Shown: in pieces, positions 39,988 through 63,900 of the stretch
Numbering within the stretch: position 1 is the stretch's first letter
Layout: every line of letters begins with the position of its first letter
Assembly: GCF_001618685.1 (NCBI RefSeq)
Contig: NZ_CP014342.1
Span: 2,852,001-2,916,000 of the forward strand
Reading direction: 5' to 3'
Source: Geobacillus subterraneus
GTDB lineage: Bacteria > Bacillota > Bacilli > Bacillales > Anoxybacillaceae
DNA length: 64,000 nucleotides
The notes under the pieces: model-generated
The model's database searches: none
Told to the model about the DNA's origin: nothing
What the model saw: only the letters and a program-made list of their open reading frames with translations
Translations under genes and position numbers: made by a program

Positions 39988-40251
39988 TTATAAGATGAAC
40001 TCATCCCCTCCCTTTTTCAACCCCATTTCTTCTCTTTTCGAGTACTTTTGGGTACGAAACGTGTAAAAAATGACCGAGTCCTCATCAGGATCCATCATTT
40101 GGCGCAGTTCCATCTTTAACTTTTCGTAATTCGCCGTTGTGATCTCCCCTTCAAACACCGAGTTTTGCACCCAATGAAGATATTTGCGAGCAATTTTCAA
40201 CGCTTTGGCCACGCGCTTTTCGTTAAAATCGTACACGAGAATCACAAACAT
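39988..40251 (-). CDS. cas2: CRISPR-associated Cas2
   Basis: An 87-residue ferredoxin-fold protein, the structural partner of Cas1 in spacer integration. MFVILVYDFNEKRVAK has the conserved Asp of the first strand, and FYTFRTQKYSKRE is typical of the type I-B subgroup. The ATG at 40251 follows TAGGTGGAAGCACT; the longer frame lies within cas1. It overlaps the end of cas1, so the two were translationally coupled. With cas1 disrupted upstream, expression now depends on readthrough of, or a promoter from, the inserted IS. Confidence 0.92.
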   Translation of the reverse strand: MFVILVYDFNEKRVAKALKIARKYLHWVQNSVFEGEITTANYEKLKMELRQMMDPDEDSVIFYTFRTQKYSKREEMGLKKGGDEFIL

Positions 40252-40262
40252 AGTGCTTCCAC

Positions 40263-41157
40263 CTACCAACGAGCTGCATAAGGCTCGTACGTTTTTTCAC
40301 CGAGAAGATGCTTTTGAACTTTATATAACTCAAGGCGAATGAGACGACGATACGATACAGACTTCCCCAGATGACGATGTTGAACCGTCGTCTGCATTTT
40401 CTTCTCCAATTCACTGACAAATAACTTTCTTCCTTCTTCATTTAACAAAATGCCGTCGGTTAATTTCTCAAAATGCTTATGCGACAACATATGTCGATTC
40501 ACTAAGGTGAAAATCAAGCGATCGACAATGATCGGTTTAAAAATTTCCGCAATATCCAAATTCAATGAAAAGCGGCGAAAGTTCGTGCTATGCAAAAAGC
40601 CAATGCGCGGATCTAAATACGTCTTATAAATTTCACTCAAACACATCGTGTACACAATCGAGTTCCCAAAGCTAATCAGTGCGTTCAAACGATTATGCGG
40701 CGGCCGTTTGGTCCGCTTTTCAAACACAAAATCTGGATGACGGATGATGGTATCGAACGAAGCATAATACGCTTCACGAATATGACCTTCTGCCGCCATT
40801 AACTGCTCCACCGTTTCCGCCTGATTCAACCTCCCTTCTTCCCGTTCGATCGATTGCAGCGCTTTTTCCAATTCCTCCGGTTCAGAAAGGCGGGAACGGT
40901 AATACTTGAGCACCCGCTCCATTTGGCGGATGGAGCCTTGAACAAACAGGCGGGCAAGCTCTAATCGTTTGGCCGGATCAATGTAATGCTCCGCTTGCTT
41001 TACTATGACATGTCCGGAATTTAAATGTTCTCGCGGATAAAAGGAGCCGACGTAATAGCCATAATGATTAAAGTAATGAACGATGATCTCTTTTTGCGCC
41101 GCAAACTCCAAAAACCGTTTCGACACGTCCACTTCCCCGAAAATATAAATATCATTC
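40263..41157 (-). pseudogene. cas1: cas1, 3' part (interrupted by an IS4-family element)
   Basis: Carries residues from about 36 to 333 of a type I-B Cas1: YIFGEVDVSKRFLEFAAQKE, VHYFNHYGYYVGSFYP, and the active-site blocks with RLNALISFGNSIVYTMCLSE, IGFLHSTNFRRFSLNLDIAE (His) and FKPIIVDRLIF (Asp). The N-terminal strand domain has been separated. The fragment's own ATG (MDNQHAWNDIYIF) comes from IS sequence plus the duplicated target. Joining this piece to 42407-42522 and dropping one 9-base duplication gives 1,002 bases, exactly 334 codons. The truncated product would lack the N-terminal domain that forms the Cas1 dimer, so it is probably inactive. Confidence 0.93.
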
Positions 41158-42406
41158 CAGGCGTGTTGATTATCCAATAAAATCCAAAGGGTATAGAAAA
41201 AAGAGCACCTTTCCTGTAGAATGTGAGTAACGACACAAACAAACCCAGGAGGTGCTCTCTATGAACAAGCATACCACACTCCCGAATTTGATGCAAAAAC
41301 TTGTTTCGGATGAAGAGATTCAACTGATTGCCGAAGCGGTTGGGTATCGTGATTCGTCTCGAACCTTTACGTTGCGCGAGTTGATTCACTTCTTCCTGCT
41401 GGCCGCCATGCATCAATGGAAAAGCTTTCGCCACGGAGCCGATGTGGGGCCTCTGTATGGATTGCCGCGATTCCATTATTCAACTGTATCCAAGAAAGCG
41501 AAAGAAGTTCCCTATGACATCATGAAACGCTTGTTGGCGTTGATCATTTCCAAGTGCAACCGCCAAACCCGCCGTTCGCTTCGGTTTCCCAAACCGCTTC
41601 GGGTGGTGGATTCGACGACCGTCACGGTCGGGAAAAACCGCCTCCCATGGGCGCCGTATCACGGCGAACGCGCCGGAGTGAAGCTGCACGTCGCGTATTC
41701 GCCGGAATCCTCGCTGCCGGCAGACGTGGTGGAAACGACCGGACTGCGTCACGATGGCCCAGTGGGAGAACAGTTGACGAACGCTCAACAAGTGCTGGTG
41801 GAAGACCGGGCGTATTTCAAAATCGAACGCCTCGATCGATTTGTGGAGCAGCATCAGCTCTTTGTCATTCGAATGAAGGACAACATCGAACTTCATCAGA
41901 AAAAAAGCTTGAAACGCCTTTCCAGCACATCTTCATCGGTTCAAGCCGACTTCACGTGCCAGTTGGGGACGAAACAATGCCGATCGACCAAGCGTCACCG
42001 GGTAGTGATCTTTCGAGATGCAAATGGCCGCGACATTCGGGTCGTGACGAACCTCTTCCATGCGTCTGCGGAAACCATTGCCGACATGTACCAACAACGT
42101 TGGACCGTTGAAGTCTTTTTCCGTTGGGTGAAGCAATATCTGAATGTCCCGACCTTGTTTGGCACGACGGAAAATGCGGTATACAACCAACTGTTTGCGG
42201 CGTTCATCGCGTATGTGTTGCTGCGATGGCTGTATGATCAAACCAAAAAACAGACGAACGTCTCTCTTTCCTTCATTTCGTTCGTTCGCCGTTTTTTCTC
42301 TGGGCAGCTTCCTCTCGATTGGAAATCCGGGATGGCCGCTGCTTTGTTTGAGTATGCCCAAATTTATGGAAGGCGTATGTATAATTTTGGATAATCAACA
42401 CTCGTG
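41158..42406 (+). mobile_element. IS4-family insertion sequence (IS5377-like) inside cas1
   Basis: 1,249 bp. The ends share GTGTTGATTATCCAA as inverted repeats, beginning CAGGC at the left and CACGA at the right. The flanks carry a 9-base direct duplication, ATATCATTC, at 41149-41157 and 42407-42415. It holds one intact transposase gene on the plus strand, against the direction of cas1. Similarity to IS5377 of G. stearothermophilus is from memory. Confidence 0.92.
41252..42394 (+). CDS. IS4-family DDE transposase
   Basis: A 380-residue transposase with the IS4 layout: Asp120 in RVVDSTTVTV, Asp185 in VLVEDRAYFKI, and Glu287 in the Y-(2)-R-(3)-E-(6)-K signature YQQRWTVEVFFRWVKQ. The N-terminal part (FTLRELIHFFLLAAMHQW) is the usual DNA-binding helix region. 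CAGGAGGTGCTCTCT precedes the ATG. The frame is unbroken, so the element may still move, and precise excision could restore cas1. Confidence 0.92.
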   Translation: MLSMNKHTTLPNLMQKLVSDEEIQLIAEAVGYRDSSRTFTLRELIHFFLLAAMHQWKSFRHGADVGPLYGLPRFHYSTVSKKAKEVPYDIMKRLLALIISKCNRQTRRSLRFPKPLRVVDSTTVTVGKNRLPWAPYHGERAGVKLHVAYSPESSLPADVVETTGLRHDGPVGEQLTNAQQVLVEDRAYFKIERLDRFVEQHQLFVIRMKDNIELHQKKSLKRLSSTSSSVQADFTCQLGTKQCRSTKRHRVVIFRDANGRDIRVVTNLFHASAETIADMYQQRWTVEVFFRWVKQYLNVPTLFGTTENAVYNQLFAAFIAYVLLRWLYDQTKKQTNVSLSFISFVRRFFSGQLPLDWKSGMAAALFEYAQIYGRRMYNFG

Positions 42407-42524: not shown

Positions 42525-43034
42525 CTATTCCTCCGCCCAACAATATTCACGGTAGGCGCATTTGCCGCAAAATGATATCTTTTTCGGCGGCGGTGGGACA
42601 GGCATTCGCACGATGCGACGGATGTCGGCAATGGCACGTTCTAACTCATGCCGCCCTTCCTCGGTCCATTCGACACATTCTTTTTTCCGCTCCTTTGGAA
42701 ACAACAGTTCCCCTTCCGCGTAGATCCCCGCCTGTCTCAACGTATCTAAATAGTATAACAGCTGCATTCGAGCGCTTTTTAAATAGCTCAATGACTTCTT
42801 CACTTCTCCTATAATCAACTGGCCGTCTTCTTGACGGATGCGATCAATGACAATGGAACCTATCGATATTTCTTTCTTGTCTCTCTGGTAAGTTGTTTCA
42901 GAAAGAAATCTCCCAATTTCTATCGCTTCATCTTCTTGGTCTGGAGCAATCTGATGCTTCATCAGCCAAACTTCGCGCGGACAAATGTAATAGTACCAAA
43001 TGTCCGTTCCCGTCACAGGCATTTCATATTCCAT
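42525..43034 (-). CDS. cas4: CRISPR-associated Cas4 nuclease
   Basis: A 169-residue PD-(D/E)XK exonuclease with an Fe-S cluster that trims prespacers and checks the PAM. Cluster cysteines: C18 in YYYICPREVW and the C-terminal group FCGKCAYREYC (C156, C159, C165). The nuclease core is GQLIIGEVKKSLSYLKSAR. The ATG at 43034 follows TAGGTGAGATCG. It stands between cas3 and cas1, in the adaptation part of the operon, with 9 and 2 bases of spacing. It is intact, but its partner Cas1 is disrupted. Confidence 0.92.
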   Translation of the reverse strand: MEYEMPVTGTDIWYYYICPREVWLMKHQIAPDQEDEAIEIGRFLSETTYQRDKKEISIGSIVIDRIRQEDGQLIIGEVKKSLSYLKSARMQLLYYLDTLRQAGIYAEGELLFPKERKKECVEWTEEGRHELERAIADIRRIVRMPVPPPPKKISFCGKCAYREYCWAEE

Positions 43035-43043
43035 CGATCTCAC

Positions 43044-45377
43044 CTACCAAATGAGCCCTTCACTTTTCGTCCGGTACCCGAGCGCCTCATCGTAAAAGTC
43101 TGACAGCGAATCGTGTCCCACATACCCGATCCCATGGACAATCGGCGGTTGGTGATCTACCCGCGCTGGAATCGCAATGACATATTGAAAAAAGCGGGTT
43201 TTAATATCAGAAAATCTCTTCCTCCGCTCCCACCGATCGCTGATTCGCAAAATGGTCTCATATTCACGAAACACTTCGCTCGCTTCCTCATCCAGCTCAA
43301 TAAAGACATTGAGTTTTTCCCCTTCTCCTTCAATCAGGTGAAAATGCGACACAGGAAGGCGGTCAACGGTTTCTTCCCCATCAAAGTACAGCGTCATCAT
43401 CCCTTTTAACAGCCGTTCGGACTCGTTATTGCTCATTCGTGCAGCCAGCGTTTCGAAATAGGCTGTAATCAACTGTAAAAATTCGCTTTCCTCTATTTTC
43501 GCTTTTCCTTTTAACAAAGCCTGTGTAATGTCTAAGCGGATCGCATCATAAATATAGCTCGCGTATAATCGCTTTTTGTTGTCTGTTAAGCGAACAATGT
43601 GCACCTTCCCTCCTCGCTGTCCGTGGCGGTTGCACCTTCCAGCTGCCTGCTGGATGGAATCCAAGGGGGCAAAGTCTCGGTAGACCACATCAAAATCAAT
43701 ATCAACCCCCGCCTCGATCAACTGCGTGCTAACGACAATCCGATACTCCCCGTTTTTCGCTGCCATGATCCGCCGCAGGCGTTCTTTTGGCGGAATATGA
43801 GTAGACAGAAACGTCATGTCCCCCTCATCTATGCCTTCGTCTAGAAAGGCACGGTATAAAGCTTTAGCACTCTCAATCGTATTCAAAATGAATAAGTACG
43901 TTTTTTCCCCATCCCACTCGATTTGCCGAGCAAACTCCTCGATCTCTAGCGGTTCGTCGATGTCTGGATGCAAGGTCACCCGGGAAAGCAGTTGAAAATA
44001 GGCCGATTCATTGACAAGGGAAACCGCTTCTGGAAACCATTTTGGATCCGTTGCCGAGCTGAAGATAAAATAACAGCCGAGTTCTTCCGCCATCGCAGCA
44101 AACAAGCGGCGAACAGCCAACCAATAACGATGAGGAACGGCCTGCACCTCATCGATGAGAATAATGGAATTGGCCAACCGATGAAATTTGCGCAGTGAAG
44201 CATTGCGGTGAGAAAAAATCGTTTCGAACAGCTGCACAAAGGTAGTCACAATCAATTCCGAATGCCAACCTTCCACCAACAGTTTCGCTGCCTCATAATC
44301 AGCGTCGTAACGCTCCTCATCTTGCCTTGTCACATAACGCATATCAGCCAGATGATGATGCGCAAGCCAAAGCTGGTGATCCTCCTGCATTCCGCTCGCA
44401 GCAAAAACGTCTTTTAGAACACTTGCCGTCTGGTCAATGATGCTGAGAAAAGGAAGACTGTAAATGATTCGGGGCGTCACCTGTTGACGGCGTTCGATTT
44501 CGTGGCGAAGACGCAAGGCAAAGTGGAGACCGGCTAACGTTTTTCCCATTCCGGTTGGCAAGTTCAACGAATACACATGATGACGCAAATCGATCGGCGC
44601 CTGATCCACTTCTTGAAACGCCCGCTCTCTCCATTCATTCAACTTCGTTTTCGGCCACGATTGTTGCTGCTTATAGCGCAGAATCAAATCAGCCGGAATG
44701 TCCTTGCGCCCGGAAAACGACCATGACTGCTTTTGCAAAATTCCAACTTCTGACTTATCTGCATCAATGAGCAGAGAGAAGAGAAACAACAGTTGCAAAT
44801 ATGGCACAAGCGAATCATTGCTTCGATTCCATTTCATGATCCAGCGGCGCAACGAGCGAGCTTCGGCAAAAAATCGTTCAATCCACGCTAACCACACTTC
44901 TTTCGTCCAAATCGCTTCTTGTCCAACACCCAAACAGGCCATCTGTTTGGATAGTGCGGAAAAGTCTGTTGCTTCAGCTTGACGTTTCAACAACGTCTTG
45001 GCCTCGTCCCCCATCCGCTTCAGTTCTTCCAGCCAATCGTCTAAATTCCCATGATGCCGCTTCACGACAAGAAACGCCAACAATCGCCAAAACTCATCCA
45101 TCCCCTTTTCTTGTAAAAAAACCGCTACGAGGACAGCCGACAAAAGCGCATGGCTTTTTAATGCAGGCGGACCTTGAAAGGAATCCGGTGATTGGATGTA
45201 TTGCTGGAAGAAGGCATGACTTTTGCCGATATCATGAAAAAGCGCAATCCACCGATTCACTTCCCCCAACTGTCCGGACTCAGCGAGACGGACGGACTTT
45301 TCAGACAAAAAGAGGGAGGAAAGCTGTTCCACCCCTCGCAAATGATCCGACAAAAAATAATGGGGATGAGAATACAT
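43044..45377 (-). CDS. cas3: type I-B CRISPR helicase-nuclease Cas3
   Basis: A 777-residue protein with the HD nuclease in front: WIALFHDIGKSH gives H48-D49, and FLVVKRHHGNLDD carries further metal ligands. The superfamily 2 helicase follows: Walker A NLPTGMGKTLAGL (about residue 277), IILIDEVQAVPHRYW (about 408, the DEAD-like box), FSSATDPKWFP, and motif VI QQAAGRCNRHGQRGG. Recruited by Cascade with crRNA bound to target, it unwinds and degrades the non-target strand. The ATG at 45377 follows GGGAGAGTAGG. All motifs are intact, so interference by the I-B system should work. Confidence 0.94.
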   Translation of the reverse strand: MYSHPHYFLSDHLRGVEQLSSLFLSEKSVRLAESGQLGEVNRWIALFHDIGKSHAFFQQYIQSPDSFQGPPALKSHALLSAVLVAVFLQEKGMDEFWRLLAFLVVKRHHGNLDDWLEELKRMGDEAKTLLKRQAEATDFSALSKQMACLGVGQEAIWTKEVWLAWIERFFAEARSLRRWIMKWNRSNDSLVPYLQLLFLFSLLIDADKSEVGILQKQSWSFSGRKDIPADLILRYKQQQSWPKTKLNEWRERAFQEVDQAPIDLRHHVYSLNLPTGMGKTLAGLHFALRLRHEIERRQQVTPRIIYSLPFLSIIDQTASVLKDVFAASGMQEDHQLWLAHHHLADMRYVTRQDEERYDADYEAAKLLVEGWHSELIVTTFVQLFETIFSHRNASLRKFHRLANSIILIDEVQAVPHRYWLAVRRLFAAMAEELGCYFIFSSATDPKWFPEAVSLVNESAYFQLLSRVTLHPDIDEPLEIEEFARQIEWDGEKTYLFILNTIESAKALYRAFLDEGIDEGDMTFLSTHIPPKERLRRIMAAKNGEYRIVVSTQLIEAGVDIDFDVVYRDFAPLDSIQQAAGRCNRHGQRGGKVHIVRLTDNKKRLYASYIYDAIRLDITQALLKGKAKIEESEFLQLITAYFETLAARMSNNESERLLKGMMTLYFDGEETVDRLPVSHFHLIEGEGEKLNVFIELDEEASEVFREYETILRISDRWERRKRFSDIKTRFFQYVIAIPARVDHQPPIVHGIGYVGHDSLSDFYDEALGYRTKSEGLIW

Positions 45378-45378
45378 C

Positions 45379-46122
45379 CTACTCTCCCTTTCCATTCGAA
45401 TAGAAAAAGACAATCCGTTCTCCTTGCGCATTCTCCCAATAATAAGGGACCGAAGCGAGGAGCGGACGCGCCCCCGCCTCGAAAATCACTTCTTCATACC
45501 GAGAAACTACCCGTGCCGGATCCATCTCCCAAGCCACTCGTTCCTTGCGATACTCTTTTCCCGGCTCTACTTTCAGCGCTTGTATGTCTCTTCCTGGGAT
45601 GACCGAACAAATAGGCACAGGCTCTTTGTCCATCGCTTCAACCCGATGAAAATCGTCTACAGCGACAAACCGTACATCTGCTAAACATTCACTCAATCCT
45701 AGACACGGCGTATAGACGCTTTTGTGCTGCCGAACGAAATCAACAAGCTGCGAAAATCGCTCATGATCGTTCATATATACGTAGCAACGGAAACGAGGAA
45801 AACGCAAAAACTCCACGCGAATTTGCGTTCGTGCTCCTTCCCGCCGTTGCTTCGGGACCCATATATTTCCTTTTGTGTTGACATAGTTGATGCCGACTCT
45901 CGTTTTTCGTACAGGTTCCATCAGGCGTACAGCCACATTCGTCGTCTCATGGTTAAACACCCGCAAATAGTCATTATCCTCTTTTCCCACTCCAACGATG
46001 GCGCCAAGCAAACCAAAAAGAGCCGTTGGGGGAATAAACGAGTGCGTCAGCGGCGAGGAAGTCGAATACATTTGGCGAAAATGGCCAAAATCGGCTCGAA
46101 CATCAAATACAAGCACATTCAT
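45379..46122 (-). CDS. cas5: type I-B Cascade subunit Cas5
   Basis: A 247-residue RAMP protein that caps the 5' handle of the crRNA. It starts MNVLVFDVRADFGHFRQMYS, the Cas5h/Cas5b form in which DxRADFGHFR is conserved, and PPTALFGLLGAIVGVGKEDN follows, with many small and aromatic residues. The start at 46122 is preferred because AGGGA is 9 bases upstream; the ATG at 46131 is too close to it. It sits between cas7 and cas3 with spacings of 15 bases and 1 base. Confidence 0.9.
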   Translation of the reverse strand: MNVLVFDVRADFGHFRQMYSTSSPLTHSFIPPTALFGLLGAIVGVGKEDNDYLRVFNHETTNVAVRLMEPVRKTRVGINYVNTKGNIWVPKQRREGARTQIRVEFLRFPRFRCYVYMNDHERFSQLVDFVRQHKSVYTPCLGLSECLADVRFVAVDDFHRVEAMDKEPVPICSVIPGRDIQALKVEPGKEYRKERVAWEMDPARVVSRYEEVIFEAGARPLLASVPYYWENAQGERIVFFYSNGKGE

Positions 46123-46137
46123 CGCACTCATTCCCTG

Positions 46138-47094
46138 TTACCGAATATCGACAGTGATTCCTTCTTTGCGCAAGCGCTCAGCCAGATTCTCACTGCACGC
46201 AAGCCTTCCGTCCTGACGCAGCTCGATGTTGGCGATGTGTTCTTTCTGTTGAACCAATACTTCAGCCAATCGCGACACATCGAGCACATAATCGCTGACA
46301 TCCCGAATTTCCTCTTCCGCTTTTTCGGTGTGAAGAGAAATATACTTATCCAACTCTCCGATATGGAAGTACGGCTCTTGATAGACGACGCGAAGAAGCA
46401 ACCGCGGAACATGTCCAACTTTCGAACGCGAAATTAAGTTTTTCGTACCTTCCCACATCGCTTCCATCAGCAACTCCACATCTTCTTCCGTTAATCCCGT
46501 GAAGCGCGCCGCCGCCTCATTGATCATCCCGTAAAAAGCAATGAGGGAATAAGGCAACACATATTCCTCACGGAACGTCTTTTGTGTCATTTGCCCACCT
46601 GAGGCAAACGCTCCGGTTCCTTTGATATACTCCATCTTCACCCGATGCAGCGATTGCCCCATTTTAAATTGGACCGGCCCTGTATGGGTAATTGAGCTTT
46701 TTTCCTTTTGATTTTTTTCGATCGGCAATGTCACGCCAAACAACCGCACATCAATGCATTGACGCAGCACTTCATCGTTGATGATTTTTTTCATTTCGCG
46801 TAAGGTCAGTTTCGATTTATCTAGTTTCTCGCCGTCTTTCACTAAAAAGTCTTCCGCCCGGGCCTTCGCATCTTGAATATACTCATCGTCTTGCGCAATT
46901 TCGCGGACAAAAATTTCTTGTTGACGATAGTCATATAAATAATCCCGAATCGTCCGTTTCAGCCGAACATCGGTGACAATATTCTTCCCCGTTTCCTCAT
47001 CGATGCGCGGCTTGTTCCCGTCAACCGGATCGCCATTCGGGTTTGCCCATTGCACATCATACAAAAAGAGCAGCTCGGAACGGTGCTTGACCAT
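46138..47094 (-). CDS. cas7: type I-B Cascade backbone subunit Cas7 (Csh2 type)
   Basis: A 318-residue protein that polymerises along the crRNA spacer. Csh2-type hallmarks: LLFLYDVQWANPNGDPVDGN at the start, then PRIDEETGKNIVTDVRLKRT, DVRLFGVTLPIEK and ITHTGPVQFKMGQSLHRV. AAGGAGGAGAAATAAT precedes the ATG. It is 1 base from the cas8b stop, which implies a strongly coupled operon and fits the need for several copies per complex. Confidence 0.94.
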   Translation of the reverse strand: MVKHRSELLFLYDVQWANPNGDPVDGNKPRIDEETGKNIVTDVRLKRTIRDYLYDYRQQEIFVREIAQDDEYIQDAKARAEDFLVKDGEKLDKSKLTLREMKKIINDEVLRQCIDVRLFGVTLPIEKNQKEKSSITHTGPVQFKMGQSLHRVKMEYIKGTGAFASGGQMTQKTFREEYVLPYSLIAFYGMINEAAARFTGLTEEDVELLMEAMWEGTKNLISRSKVGHVPRLLLRVVYQEPYFHIGELDKYISLHTEKAEEEIRDVSDYVLDVSRLAEVLVQQKEHIANIELRQDGRLACSENLAERLRKEGITVDIR

Positions 47095-47095
47095 A

Positions 47096-48811
47096 TTATT
47101 TCTCCTCCTTGTTCGCTACGATTTCTTTGACCTTCCACGATAAGTTCATCCCGCAGGCGAAATAAAAATTCAATTCATCGACAGATAATTTCCATCTTGG
47201 GGAAGAGGATAGGAATAAATGGGAAATTTCTTCCGCCAACTGTCGATGGCTCGCATAGTAAGACTCGTATTCTTCGAGTTTTCCGATGACCTTCGGAAGC
47301 AGCCCTTTGATCGCCTTCTGGTCCATCTTCAACCCCATTAATTGCTTCACAAATGGCTTGCTTCCCCGTTTTTGTTGCTGGATGTCAAGCAACATTTGCG
47401 TCAATGCCCCCAACAGGAAAACAGCTTGTTTTTCCGGAGACTCCAGCTGTCCCCCGTACGCATCAAACAACTGCGCAAATTTCCCTTGCACCGCCTTCTC
47501 TCCTTTCCTGACCAGCACGCCCGCCTGCTCTAAAAAAAGCACAACCGCAAGCGCTTGACGTGTTTTGTTGACAAACGACCAATCGCCAGCCTCATAATCA
47601 TAAAAATCAGCCCGAAGCTGCTCCATAAAAAAGGGAGCGAAAAACGAGATCGAAAGGGGCTTCTTTTGGAATACATACTCCACCACTTGCAAAAAGTACT
47701 TATCATAGACACCCGGCCGAAAAAAGGTGCGAAGAAAGCCAAAGTGAAAAGGATGGTCCCCTTCTCTATACAGAAGAGACTCCGTCGCTTTCTTCGCTTG
47801 AAACAATTCACTAATTCGCGACGGCAACACATCTTCAATCAATAACAAAATCCGCTCGGCACTTTGAATCTTCTGCAAGAACAACAGCTGAAGCGACAGG
47901 GAATTATCATAGTCTTGCATGAGCCCAAGCAAGTCTTCCTCCGTCGTCATAAAGGAATCTGCCTGCTCTTGATGAACGCGAATGTCTTTCTTTCCGTCTG
48001 TCAAATATTGAAGCAATTCATCCAATACATCCTTGCCAGCCGGAATGAGCAATGTCGGAATGACGAAATAAGAAAAACCGTAAAAGCGATAGTGCAAATG
48101 GGACTCCACAAACTTTCTTCCTTCTTCAATATGAGCTTTGCAAGATAAACAGACGGGGTAATTTCGCCACGCTTTGGCCTCGTCAAACCCTCCTGTAATA
48201 AATCCGGGCTTGTCCAACGTATAAAACCGAAACACGGATAATTTTCCGATGACCGTATCTTTGCGCTCCCCACAAATAGCGCATACTTGATCCCGAGCCG
48301 ACAACTCCATATCTTTCTCGTGAACTAGATGCAAGAAAGCATCGCGAAACGGCTCACAGTCATATAAATAGGAGCCGTTAATTTTTAGAGAAATAAGGGA
48401 ACGATCGGTTGAGAGAGAGAGTTTTTCCCTCAACTCCTGCAAGATCGCTTCCTTTTTTTGCACAAGCAATTGCTCAATCGCCCGAAGAACGGGATGATCC
48501 ATTTTGCGGGTAACCGTTCGAAACCAGCCAATGACTTTTTGTTCATATGTATTTTCAATCGTTGTAATTTTCGCCGTCGGCGAATAGTTGGCTCCGCGAG
48601 ACGAACCGGAACGAAACAAATATTTTTTGTAATCGCTTCCACATCCCTCAATCTCGCAACCTTCCCAGACAACATTCCCTTCTTCGTCCGCACGCACTGC
48701 AACAAGCACACAAGCAGGATAGCCGGGGTTCTCCACCAACTGATCCACCACTGACCCCTCTCCTTGCTTTTCAAGCACTATCTTCCCAATTTGGGCGATC
48801 GCTTCGATCAA
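47096..48811 (-). CDS. cas8b: type I-B Cascade large subunit Cas8b (Csh1 type)
   Basis: A 571-residue large subunit that recognises the PAM. It has a Csh1-type zinc motif: QVCAICGERKD (about residue 174) and PVCLSCKAHIEEG (about 198). The TTG start at 48811 (LIEAIAQIGKIVLEKQG) is chosen on two grounds: CGGAGGGG lies 7 bases upstream, and the ATG at 48847 is embedded in the promoter -10 sequence. It is first in the operon, so the operator-promoter at 48846-48875 would control the whole I-B set. No separate cas11 gene is visible; in I-B systems the small subunit can be made from an internal start in cas8b (established for the subtype, not tested here). Confidence 0.9.
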   Translation of the reverse strand: MIEAIAQIGKIVLEKQGEGSVVDQLVENPGYPACVLVAVRADEEGNVVWEGCEIEGCGSDYKKYLFRSGSSRGANYSPTAKITTIENTYEQKVIGWFRTVTRKMDHPVLRAIEQLLVQKKEAILQELREKLSLSTDRSLISLKINGSYLYDCEPFRDAFLHLVHEKDMELSARDQVCAICGERKDTVIGKLSVFRFYTLDKPGFITGGFDEAKAWRNYPVCLSCKAHIEEGRKFVESHLHYRFYGFSYFVIPTLLIPAGKDVLDELLQYLTDGKKDIRVHQEQADSFMTTEEDLLGLMQDYDNSLSLQLLFLQKIQSAERILLLIEDVLPSRISELFQAKKATESLLYREGDHPFHFGFLRTFFRPGVYDKYFLQVVEYVFQKKPLSISFFAPFFMEQLRADFYDYEAGDWSFVNKTRQALAVVLFLEQAGVLVRKGEKAVQGKFAQLFDAYGGQLESPEKQAVFLLGALTQMLLDIQQQKRGSKPFVKQLMGLKMDQKAIKGLLPKVIGKLEEYESYYASHRQLAEEISHLFLSSSPRWKLSVDELNFYFACGMNLSWKVKEIVANKEEK

Positions 48812-48845
48812 TCTATCACCCCTCCGCATCATGAGAACTAATTCC

Positions 48846-48875
48846 ATTATACCATATTTCAGGAAATATGGTATA
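48846..48875 (-). promoter_or_regulatory. cas I-B promoter with a perfect palindromic operator
   Basis: TATACCATATTTC (48848-48860) and GAAATATGGTATA (48863-48875) are perfect reverse complements 2 bases apart. On the minus strand the second half runs into an extended -10 (TGG-TATAAT, 48851-48846). No good -35 is present. A dimeric regulator binding here would cover the -10 box. Confidence 0.75.
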
Positions 48876-49224
48876 AAAATTTATAATATTTAGTGATTAT
48901 AAATCATCGTTCAAACCACAGACGAAAAAATTGGCACATAGCCCACATAATCGTTATGCATCAAAACTCCGTAACGCTTGCCCAACTCCAAGAGGGGCCC
49001 ACATAACTCCTGAAAAAATCTGTTTCACGCAAAACATCGATTAAGGAAAAAAAGGCCATGGACAACCTTTTTCCCTCCCCTATAAAAATCACGTGGTACG
49101 ATTCTCACGGAACAAGCGGCTGAAGTCAAACTTCATGAAAAAAAGGCGGTGGATAACCGCCTTCTTCTTTCCCTCTTACTCATTCAACAGGAAACACCAG
49201 GATGAGATCGACCCCCTTTCCCTC
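48876..49224. other. intergenic region with a terminator
   Basis: About 350 bases between the cas8b promoter and the Rpn copy 2 stop. No gene is supported. Near 49138-49163 the minus strand has GGCGG and CCGCC arms in AAGGCGGTTATCCACCGCC followed by seven T, a good terminator for the Rpn gene. Confidence 0.6.
49138..49163 (-). terminator. terminator of Rpn copy 2
   Basis: The minus strand reads GGCGGTTATCCACCGCC followed by TTTTTTT, about 60 bases after the stop codon at 49225. Confidence 0.8.
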
Positions 49225-50109
49225 TTACTCGCTCAGCAAGCTTCGAACCTCTTCTTCAGAAAGATCAACCAACCGGGCAATCTCGGCGGCCGTCATCCCT
49301 TTTTGCGCCATCGTCTCAATGAGCCGCTTCATTCCTTGCTTCATCCCTTGCTCAAGGCCGCGTTTTACCCCTTCTTCCAGCCCCTCTTTCTTCCCTTTTT
49401 GCTCGTAGGAGATGATCAGCTCCAACACTTTCTCTCGTTCTTTCGTTTCCATCGCCTTCACCTCGCTTTGCAGCTGTTGTTCCTCTTCCTCCGTCAGCTT
49501 CACGTACGTCTCAAAAAACCCAAGCAGCAGCCGCTGCCTTGCCTCATCGAGCTCCAACCGCACCAGCATGCGCAAAAACTCTTTTTTCAGCTCCACCTTC
49601 TCTCTTTCAGTATACCCCATTTGACTGAGCAGCGCAGCCGCGACCGGGTTGTCGTGCCGGATGTACTCCCGCCACTGCTTCTTCCGCAACGCCACCGGAA
49701 AAAAGCGAAACTGCAGCACTTCCCCAAACGGAAATTCCATCGAAAACACAGACGGTTCCTCGCGGAGAGAATCATAGTGGAAGACGGCGATCGGGACGAT
49801 GCGGGTCCGGTAGGTTTCATACAAGCGGCTGAAATAGAGGAACATGCGCTCGGCAAACGTCGGCTGGACATACCCTTGCGTTTCCACGTGCACGATGATC
49901 AGCCCGTCTTCGCCTTTCAGCTTCGTCTCGACCAGCAGATCAACGCGGTACTTTTCGCCAGCCGTCACATCAGTAAACAGCTCTTCGGATAAAAAGGACA
50001 GATGGTGGAAATCGATATGCTCGTGCATGTCGGGGAAAAAGAGGAGCAGAAACTCTTCGAAAAACGTGCGGATCAGCTCTTTGAACAGCCGATCATGGTC
50101 AATCGCCAT
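49225..50109 (-). CDS. Rpn-family PD-(D/E)XK nuclease / putative transposase (copy 2)
   Basis: A 294-residue paralog of 19107-19985 with the same plan: MAIDHDRLFKELIRTFFEEF at the start, nuclease core YRVDLLVETKLKGEDGLIIV with HVETQ (about residues 54-78), a helical middle with RLELDEARQRLLLGFFETYV, and a Gly/Lys/Glu-rich stretch GKKEGLEEGVKRGLEQGMKQ before a final helix-turn-helix-like segment (MTAAEIARLVDLSEEEVRSL). AAGGTGAGGTGATTGA precedes the ATG. It lies between the I-B promoter and the stranded CRISPR repeats. The two copies differ at many positions, so duplication within this strain is not recent. Confidence 0.8.
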   Translation of the reverse strand: MAIDHDRLFKELIRTFFEEFLLLFFPDMHEHIDFHHLSFLSEELFTDVTAGEKYRVDLLVETKLKGEDGLIIVHVETQGYVQPTFAERMFLYFSRLYETYRTRIVPIAVFHYDSLREEPSVFSMEFPFGEVLQFRFFPVALRKKQWREYIRHDNPVAAALLSQMGYTEREKVELKKEFLRMLVRLELDEARQRLLLGFFETYVKLTEEEEQQLQSEVKAMETKEREKVLELIISYEQKGKKEGLEEGVKRGLEQGMKQGMKRLIETMAQKGMTAAEIARLVDLSEEEVRSLLSE

Positions 50110-50177: not shown

Positions 50178-50274
50178 TGAGAAATTCGTCATAGGTACGA
50201 TAAAAACGGCAGAAGGAACTCCAATTGTCACGACCGGGATGACGTTTCAATCCCTTTATAGGTACGATAAAAAC
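50178..50274 (-). CRISPR. two stranded degenerate CRISPR repeats
   Basis: A partial repeat ending CATAGGTACGATAAAAAC (to 50207), a 36-base spacer (50208-50243), and a repeat at 50244-50274 with an extra base (CTTTATAGG where the consensus has CTCATAGG). They are separated from array 2 by a small frame and the IS630 element and look like its former leader-distal end. Confidence 0.75.
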
Positions 50275-61996: not shown

Positions 61997-63900
61997 GTTC
62001 CGGTCTCTCATAGGTACGATAAAAACCATTTTGGACTCGGAGGCGGATGTGTTGGATGATCTGTTTCAATCCCTCATAGGTACGATAAAAACCCAAAAAC
62101 CACCGCAGAAATGCTTCTTATGTACGCGCAGATTTCAATCCCTCATAGGTACGATAAAAACGTATCGCGACAGGACGACGCCAAGCGGCTGCGAAATGAA
62201 TTTCAATCCCTCATAGGTACGATAAAAACGGCGGGTTAGCCGATTGCCCTCGCTAGAAAACCACGCATTTCAATCCCTCATAGGTACGATAAAAACTGAT
62301 ATTGCTCATCGATAGCACTTAATTTTGTTTCATTTCAATCCCTCATAGGTACGATAAAAACTTGTGAAGAAGTTTGCCGGAGCGAAAGGAAACGCGAAAT
62401 TTCAATCCCTCATAGGTACGATAAAAACCTATCCACCCGTTTGCAACCCGGCGGACGGGTTATTTATTTCAATCCCTCATAGGTACGATAAAAACGGAAA
62501 ACATATAGTGACGCTCGTAGGACAGCTCAGAAGCATTTCAATCCCTCATAGGTACGATAAAAACTGGGAACGGGAGAACACTGCTGAACGTGTCAAGGTG
62601 TTTCAATCCCTCATAGGTACGATAAAAACGCGATAAAAAAGTAGAGCGTGTTTTGGTGGCTAAAGTTTCAATCCCTCATAGGTACGATAAAAACCTCTGT
62701 TCTGAAAGGTGACGGATGAGACCTGGAATGTTTCAATCCCTCATAGGTACGATAAAAACCTCTGTTCTGAAAGGTGACGGATGAGACCTGGAATGTTTCA
62801 ATCCCTCATAGGTACGATAAAAACTGATGACCTCCCGTTTTAAAAAATGTAGAACAAAAAGTTTCAATCCCTCATAGGTACGATAAAAACTATCGGGTAG
62901 TGGCTCGGTCTGTCCTTGTAAACTCGGTTTCAATCCCTCATAGGTACGATAAAAACTCGTGTTCACATTGAGAGACGGAATGGACCCGCGTGAGGGTTTC
63001 AATCCCTCATAGGTACGATAAAAACGCCGATCTGCGTAGTATTCGGATTAGTCAAAAGGGTTTCAATCCCTCATAGGTACGATAAAAACTCATGCTCATA
63101 AATATCGTCCTCCTTCGTTATTGAACCGGTTTCAATCCCTCATAGGTACGATAAAAACATAAGGTCAAAATCATTTTTTTGTTCATCTAGCGTGTTTCAA
63201 TCCCTCATAGGTACGATAAAAACATGATACTATCATGATACTTTTGACGTGTTTTTCCATTGTAGTTTCAATCCCTCATAGGTACGATAAAAACGTGAAC
63301 GCGAACAGGAAATGTTCCACGACATCTAAGTTTCAATCCCTCATAGGTACGATAAAAACTGATCAAGAAATTGCTCGACACATTCAAATTGTCGCTAAGT
63401 TTCAATCCCTCATAGGTACGATAAAAACTGAGTCCAAAGTAGAGCGGTTGAAATCGTACCTGCAAGAAGTTTCAATCCCTCATAGGTACGATAAAAACTG
63501 CGATACCACTTTGTTTTATCGATCTTCAAGCTGTGTTTCAATCCCTCATAGGTACGATAAAAACGTGAACGCGAACAGGAAATGTTCCACGACATCTAAG
63601 TTTCAATCCCTCATAGGTACGATAAAAACTGATCAAGAAATTGCTCGACACATTCAAATTGTCGCTAAGTTTCAATCCCTCATAGGTACGATAAAAACCT
63701 TGTTCTTGTTGCGGTAGCGGGGTTATGACAACACTGTTTCAATCCCTCATAGGTACGATAAAAACGGACAGCTACCCTGCTAAACCGCATTGGGCACCGG
63801 AGTTTCAATCCCTCATAGGTACGATAAAAACGCCTGTTTCCTCGGTGTGTGAAAGAACGAATGGATACGGGTTTCAATCCCTCATAGGTACGATAAAAAC
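61997..63900 (-). CRISPR. CRISPR array 3 (29 repeats, 28 spacers)
   Basis: Same 30-bp repeat and orientation; spacers 34-41 bases. Repeat starts: 61997 (degenerate, GTTCCGGTCTCTC), 62063, 62132, 62200, 62267, 62332, 62399, 62466, 62535, 62600, 62665, 62730, 62795, 62861, 62927, 62996, 63060, 63129, 63194, 63265, 63330, 63399, 63469, 63535, 63600, 63669, 63736, 63802 and 63871. Seven in a row (62132 to 62535) begin with A instead of G. Two spacers are tandem duplicates (62695 and 62760), and a two-spacer block at 63295-63398 recurs at 63565-63668. The leader begins at 63901. Confidence 0.97.

What the first reader, a model, noticed from the sequence alone, without database searches (positions are those of the whole stretch)
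48846..48875. Perfect 13+2+13 palindrome over the -10 box of the I-B operon
TATACCATATTTC and GAAATATGGTATA form a 28-base palindrome that overlaps an extended -10 (TGG-TATAAT), and no good -35 exists. This is the architecture of a repressor operator. No regulator gene lies in the operon, so control would come from elsewhere.
Basis: partly seen in the sequence, partly recalled or inferred. Interest (0 to 1): 0.66.

Follow-up and report, generated by a model that had tools for sequence, protein, structure and literature searches.

The report
Perfect palindrome over a CRISPR-cas promoter
A perfect 30-base mirror-image DNA site lies on the predicted start switch of a Geobacillus CRISPR immune operon and looks like a repressor landing site, but only one other known species has it and no repressor could be named.

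Summary
The palindrome is slightly longer than stated: TTATACCATATTTC-AG-GAAATATGGTATAA, 14+2+14, window 48847-48876. It overlaps an extended -10 (TGG-TATAAT, minus strand, 48854..48846) with no good -35, just upstream of cas8b, whose true start is probably TTG at 48811. A perfect repeat this long with so short a loop is expected about 0.002 times per 64 kb, and it is not terminator-like.

The repressor interpretation is only partly supported. The site occurs once in the genome, and in only one other of 14 genomes of the genus (G. icigianus, where one arm has a mismatch). Near-matches elsewhere in the genus are absent or marginal, so no regulon points to a regulator. Orthologous promoters of other genera keep at most the extended -10 and lack the palindrome. 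About 30 Cas8b start regions show nothing comparable. No known operator consensus fits. crRNA-guided (CreR) autorepression was tested and not supported.

Symmetry also creates an extended -10 on the plus strand (TGG-TATAAA), so an incidental back-to-back promoter pair is a real rival. Best reading: a lineage-specific operator for an unidentified dimeric repressor (about 0.5). Modest interest.

The parts
48847..48876 (.). Perfect 14+2+14 palindrome TTATACCATATTTC-AG-GAAATATGGTATAA
   Evidence: unique in the genome
48846..48854 (-). Extended -10 (TGG-TATAAT) of the predicted cas8b promoter; transcription start expected about 48839-48843 (inferred)
   Evidence: sequence; one search places it 34 nt before the start codon; TGG-TACAAT lies 32 nt before the start in two other genera
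48869..48877 (+). Mirror-image extended -10-like sequence TGG-TATAAA facing away from the operon (possible divergent promoter, inferred)
   Evidence: sequence
48819..48825 (-). Ribosome-binding site GGAGGGG of cas8b
   Evidence: sequence; start region compared in orthologues
47096..48811 (-). cas8b (Csh1 / TIGR02556), first gene of the type I-B operon, TTG start
46138..47094 (-). cas7 (Csh2)
45379..46131 (-). cas5b
43044..45431 (-). cas3
42525..43043 (-). cas4
40263..41177 (-). cas1b (beyond an IS4-type transposase)
39988..40269 (-). cas2
50178..50274 (-). Two degenerate CRISPR repeats around one spacer: leader-distal tail of the array that sits upstream of cas8b in relatives

Best explanation
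The palindrome is a lineage-specific operator superimposed on the extended -10 promoter of the type I-B cas operon. A two-fold symmetric DNA-binding protein encoded elsewhere would occupy 48847-48876 and exclude RNA polymerase, keeping cas8b-cas7-cas5-cas3-cas4-cas1-cas2 low until it is released. Shown: the palindrome, its position on the -10, its rarity, its presence in two species. Inferred: that the -10 is used, that a protein binds, that it represses. The regulator is unknown.
For: Perfect 14+2+14 symmetry, about 0.002 expected per 64 kb, not terminator-like. It covers most of the -10 and the whole spacer of an extended -10 promoter without a -35, the usual place for a steric repressor. 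The extended -10 has a counterpart at nearly the same distance from the start codon in two other genera, so this is probably the true promoter. The site persists as 13 of 14 arm pairs in G. icigianus.
Against: No second copy in the genome, so no autoregulated or co-regulated gene. Absent from orthologous promoters of other genera. In G. icigianus one arm is broken at 48856, and the site does not look better conserved than its flanks. No match above cut-off to the Csa3 family. No consensus of 15 known Bacillus regulators fits better than chance after correction.
Confidence: 0.5

Rival explanations
1. Mutational by-product with no regulator: an inverted copy of the promoter's own -10 segment was made upstream by template switching, or an imperfect palindrome was corrected to a perfect one. 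The result is two overlapping back-to-back extended -10 promoters, one for cas8b and one firing an untranslated transcript towards the Rpn-family gene.
For: Both arms carry ATGGTATAA, so both strands hold an extended -10 (TGG-TATAAT minus, TGG-TATAAA plus). The palindrome is confined to two closely related loci, while other genera have at most the -10 half. No second genomic site.
Against: The predicted start sites are about 44 bp apart, outside the 7-25 bp that defines bidirectional promoters with a shared -10 (PMC10268837). No recognisable gene or Rfam RNA lies on the plus strand there. Symmetry extends through the centre, beyond what two -10s need.
Confidence: 0.32
2. The palindrome acts as a structure: a cruciform in the DNA, or a hairpin in read-through RNA from upstream, that modulates expression without a protein.
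For: A 12-pair stem is predicted for the 30-mer, and the DNA is AT-rich with a short loop.
Against: The hairpin is weak at growth temperature (-5.8 kcal/mol at 60 C), is not followed by a T run, and lies upstream of the predicted start site, so the main mRNA would not contain it.
Confidence: 0.1
3. Cascade autorepression guided by a crRNA-like RNA (CreR-type) from the degenerate repeat unit at 50178-50274 or from an array spacer.
For: Degenerate repeats lie upstream of the operon, and the P. thermoglucosidasius type I-B Cascade can repress transcription with shortened guides (PMC10551041).
Against: The degenerate unit is the tail of the array, seen in relatives too. Its spacer has a best seed run of 2 nt at a PAM in the promoter; the best of 54 spacers (6 nt) is within the shuffled range.
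Confidence: 0.03

Closest known systems
Promoter-overlapping operators of dimeric repressors (TetR and ArsR type; from general knowledge)
   Same: Long inverted repeat with a short centre, over the -10 and spacer of a sigma-A type promoter
   Different: No regulator identified, no second site, no binding data, not conserved in orthologous promoters
Bidirectional promoters with symmetric -10 elements (PMC10268837, PMC12825309)
   Same: The palindrome places an extended -10 on each strand
   Different: Predicted start sites about 44 bp apart instead of 7-25 bp; the two -10s are separate, not shared
CreR / Cascade autorepression of cas operons (reviewed in PMC12737573)
   Same: Control acting on a cas promoter, with degenerate repeats upstream of the operon
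   Different: No seed match with PAM to the promoter; the degenerate repeats are an array tail
Csa3b control of archaeal cas operons (reviewed in PMC10013973)
   Same: A dedicated regulator binding a cas promoter
   Different: No Csa3-family gene above the curated cut-off in this genome

Membership tests
Operator of a dimeric repressor | Two-fold symmetric site overlapping core promoter elements | tested here: met
Operator of a dimeric repressor | Bound by an identified protein that lowers transcription | not testable with these tools
   no binding or expression data available
Operator of a dimeric repressor | Supporting, not strictly defining: further sites in the genome or conservation in orthologous promoters | tested here: not met
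   only the near-identical G. icigianus locus shares it
Bidirectional promoter (shared -10) | Divergent start sites 7-25 bp apart | tested here: inconclusive
   predicted separation about 44 bp, outside the definition; start sites not measured
CreR-guided cas autorepression | crRNA-like spacer with PAM-adjacent seed match in the cas promoter | tested here: not met
   spacers of this window only, PAM taken from the P. thermoglucosidasius system
Csa3-controlled cas operon | Csa3 (CARF-HTH) gene in the genome | tested here: not met
   no match above the curated cut-off
CodY regulon | Match to AATTTTCWGAAAATT | tested here: inconclusive
   4 mismatches at 48854, 32 equally good places in 64 kb; consensus from memory

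The most novel reading that the evidence does not exclude
A dedicated repressor, possibly acquired together with this cas operon variant and binding nowhere else in the genome, controls type I-B immunity in a small Geobacillus lineage.
Probability: 0.12. Interest if true: 0.55.

Novelty: new member of a known kind. Interest (0 to 1): 0.3.

Why it matters
I found no report on control of the native type I-B operon in this group, while the P. thermoglucosidasius type I-B system is used as a genome tool (PMC10551041). A verified operator would give a handle on when this immunity is switched on and on a host regulator of CRISPR in thermophilic Bacillota.

Tried and rejected
Multi-copy element (MITE): rejected, one copy per genome. 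Terminator: rejected, no T run, 23% G+C. CreR-type mini-CRISPR: the unit at 50178-50274 looked promising, but it is the array tail and its spacer does not match the promoter. Exact half-site elsewhere in G. icigianus (C82): single half-site, no partner arm. Literature search for the motif letters gave no relevant regulator; the streptococcal NagR site has TATACC but different geometry. Csa3 family: only sub-cut-off hits. Viral contigs and plasmids: no copy of the palindrome or promoter region. The hit in G073 (L003) has 3 mismatches in AT-rich DNA; its gene context was not examined and it is treated as chance. The whole genome was not available as a file, so a position-weight scan of it was not done.

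Full report
Observation. The palindrome is real and slightly longer than reported: TTATACCATATTTC-AG-GAAATATGGTATAA, 48847-48876, 14+2+14, no mismatch. On the minus strand its low-coordinate end merges into TGG-TATAAT, an extended -10 at 48854..48846. No acceptable -35 is found. The reading frame opens at an ATG at 48847, but the true start is very probably TTG at 48811: it has GGAGGGG in front, and orthologues begin at the same TTGAT. The start of transcription would then be near 48839-48843 (inferred), and the palindrome would cover roughly -5 to -36 relative to it, outside the main mRNA.

Chance. In 1000 random 64-kb sequences with the window's dinucleotide statistics, repeats with arm >=14 and loop <=2 appeared twice. 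In 427 kb of fetched DNA, twelve distinct perfect repeats with arms >=12 were found; ours has the lowest G+C, 23%, and most of the others are terminator-like or G+C-richer stems. Chance is unlikely, but mutational processes that create inverted repeats are not excluded by this test.

Surroundings. The operon reads cas8b-cas7-cas5-cas3-cas4-(IS4-type transposase)-cas1-cas2, with cas6 further on. No regulator was recognised among the operon genes scanned. Upstream lie an Rpn-family nuclease gene, two degenerate CRISPR repeats, an insertion sequence and an array; a type III-B operon follows.

Distribution. At up to 3 mismatches over 26 positions, 101 genomes gave the own site, G. icigianus (one mismatch) and one AT-rich match in an order-level relative. 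The name icigianus comes from the matching public contig. Cores of 20 positions gave no other site in 14 genomes of the genus except one 3-mismatch hit in G. icigianus; the 16-position core was no more frequent than its control. Viral contigs hold no exact copy, and plasmids have no similar promoter region. Cas8b orthologues at 51-66% identity in other genera lack the palindrome; two keep TGG-TACAAT 32 nt before the start codon, as against 34 nt here. Among about 30 Cas8b loci surveyed, no other start region has a comparable palindrome; three gave no usable frame, and where cas8b is not the first gene the comparison is uninformative.

Conservation. Between the window and G. icigianus the palindrome has one change (48856), the 36-nt leader one, and the 27 bp upstream two. 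With two close sequences this neither supports nor excludes selection on the site.

Rivals. The symmetry places TGG-TATAAA on the plus strand (48869-48877), so an incidental back-to-back promoter is possible. The two predicted start sites lie about 44 bp apart, outside the 7-25 bp of known bidirectional promoters with shared -10s (PMC10268837). The RNA hairpin is weak at 60 C. The CreR idea was followed because degenerate repeats lie upstream of the operon; relatives show that these are array tails next to cas8b, and no spacer has a PAM-adjacent seed match beyond shuffled expectation, using the PAM of the P. thermoglucosidasius system (PMC10551041). A CodY-like core is present with 4 mismatches but is not significant after 15 motifs (consensus sequences from memory).

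Verdict. The feature is genuine, operator-like and lineage-specific, and its function is unproven. I give 0.5 to a repressor operator and 0.32 to a by-product of promoter symmetry.

Noticed in passing
50178-50274: Degenerate two-repeat CRISPR unit, separated from cas8b by an Rpn-family nuclease gene and from the main array by an insertion sequence; in relatives the array tail sits directly upstream of cas8b.
   Followed up: yes
48879-48904: A second, imperfect inverted repeat (ATTTATAATC-ACTAAA-TATTATAAAT) lies right next to the palindrome and is partly eroded in G. icigianus.
   Followed up: no
49082-49230: The 3' flank of the Rpn-family gene is 99% identical to a stretch in another Geobacillus genome without this cas8b, suggesting that the gene and flank were inserted as a unit between array and operon.
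   Followed up: partly
63265-63428 and 63535-63698: A 164-nt segment of a CRISPR array is duplicated exactly, with spacers repeated.
   Followed up: no
41252-42394: An IS4-type transposase gene on the + strand lies inside the type I-B operon between cas4 and cas1.
   Followed up: no
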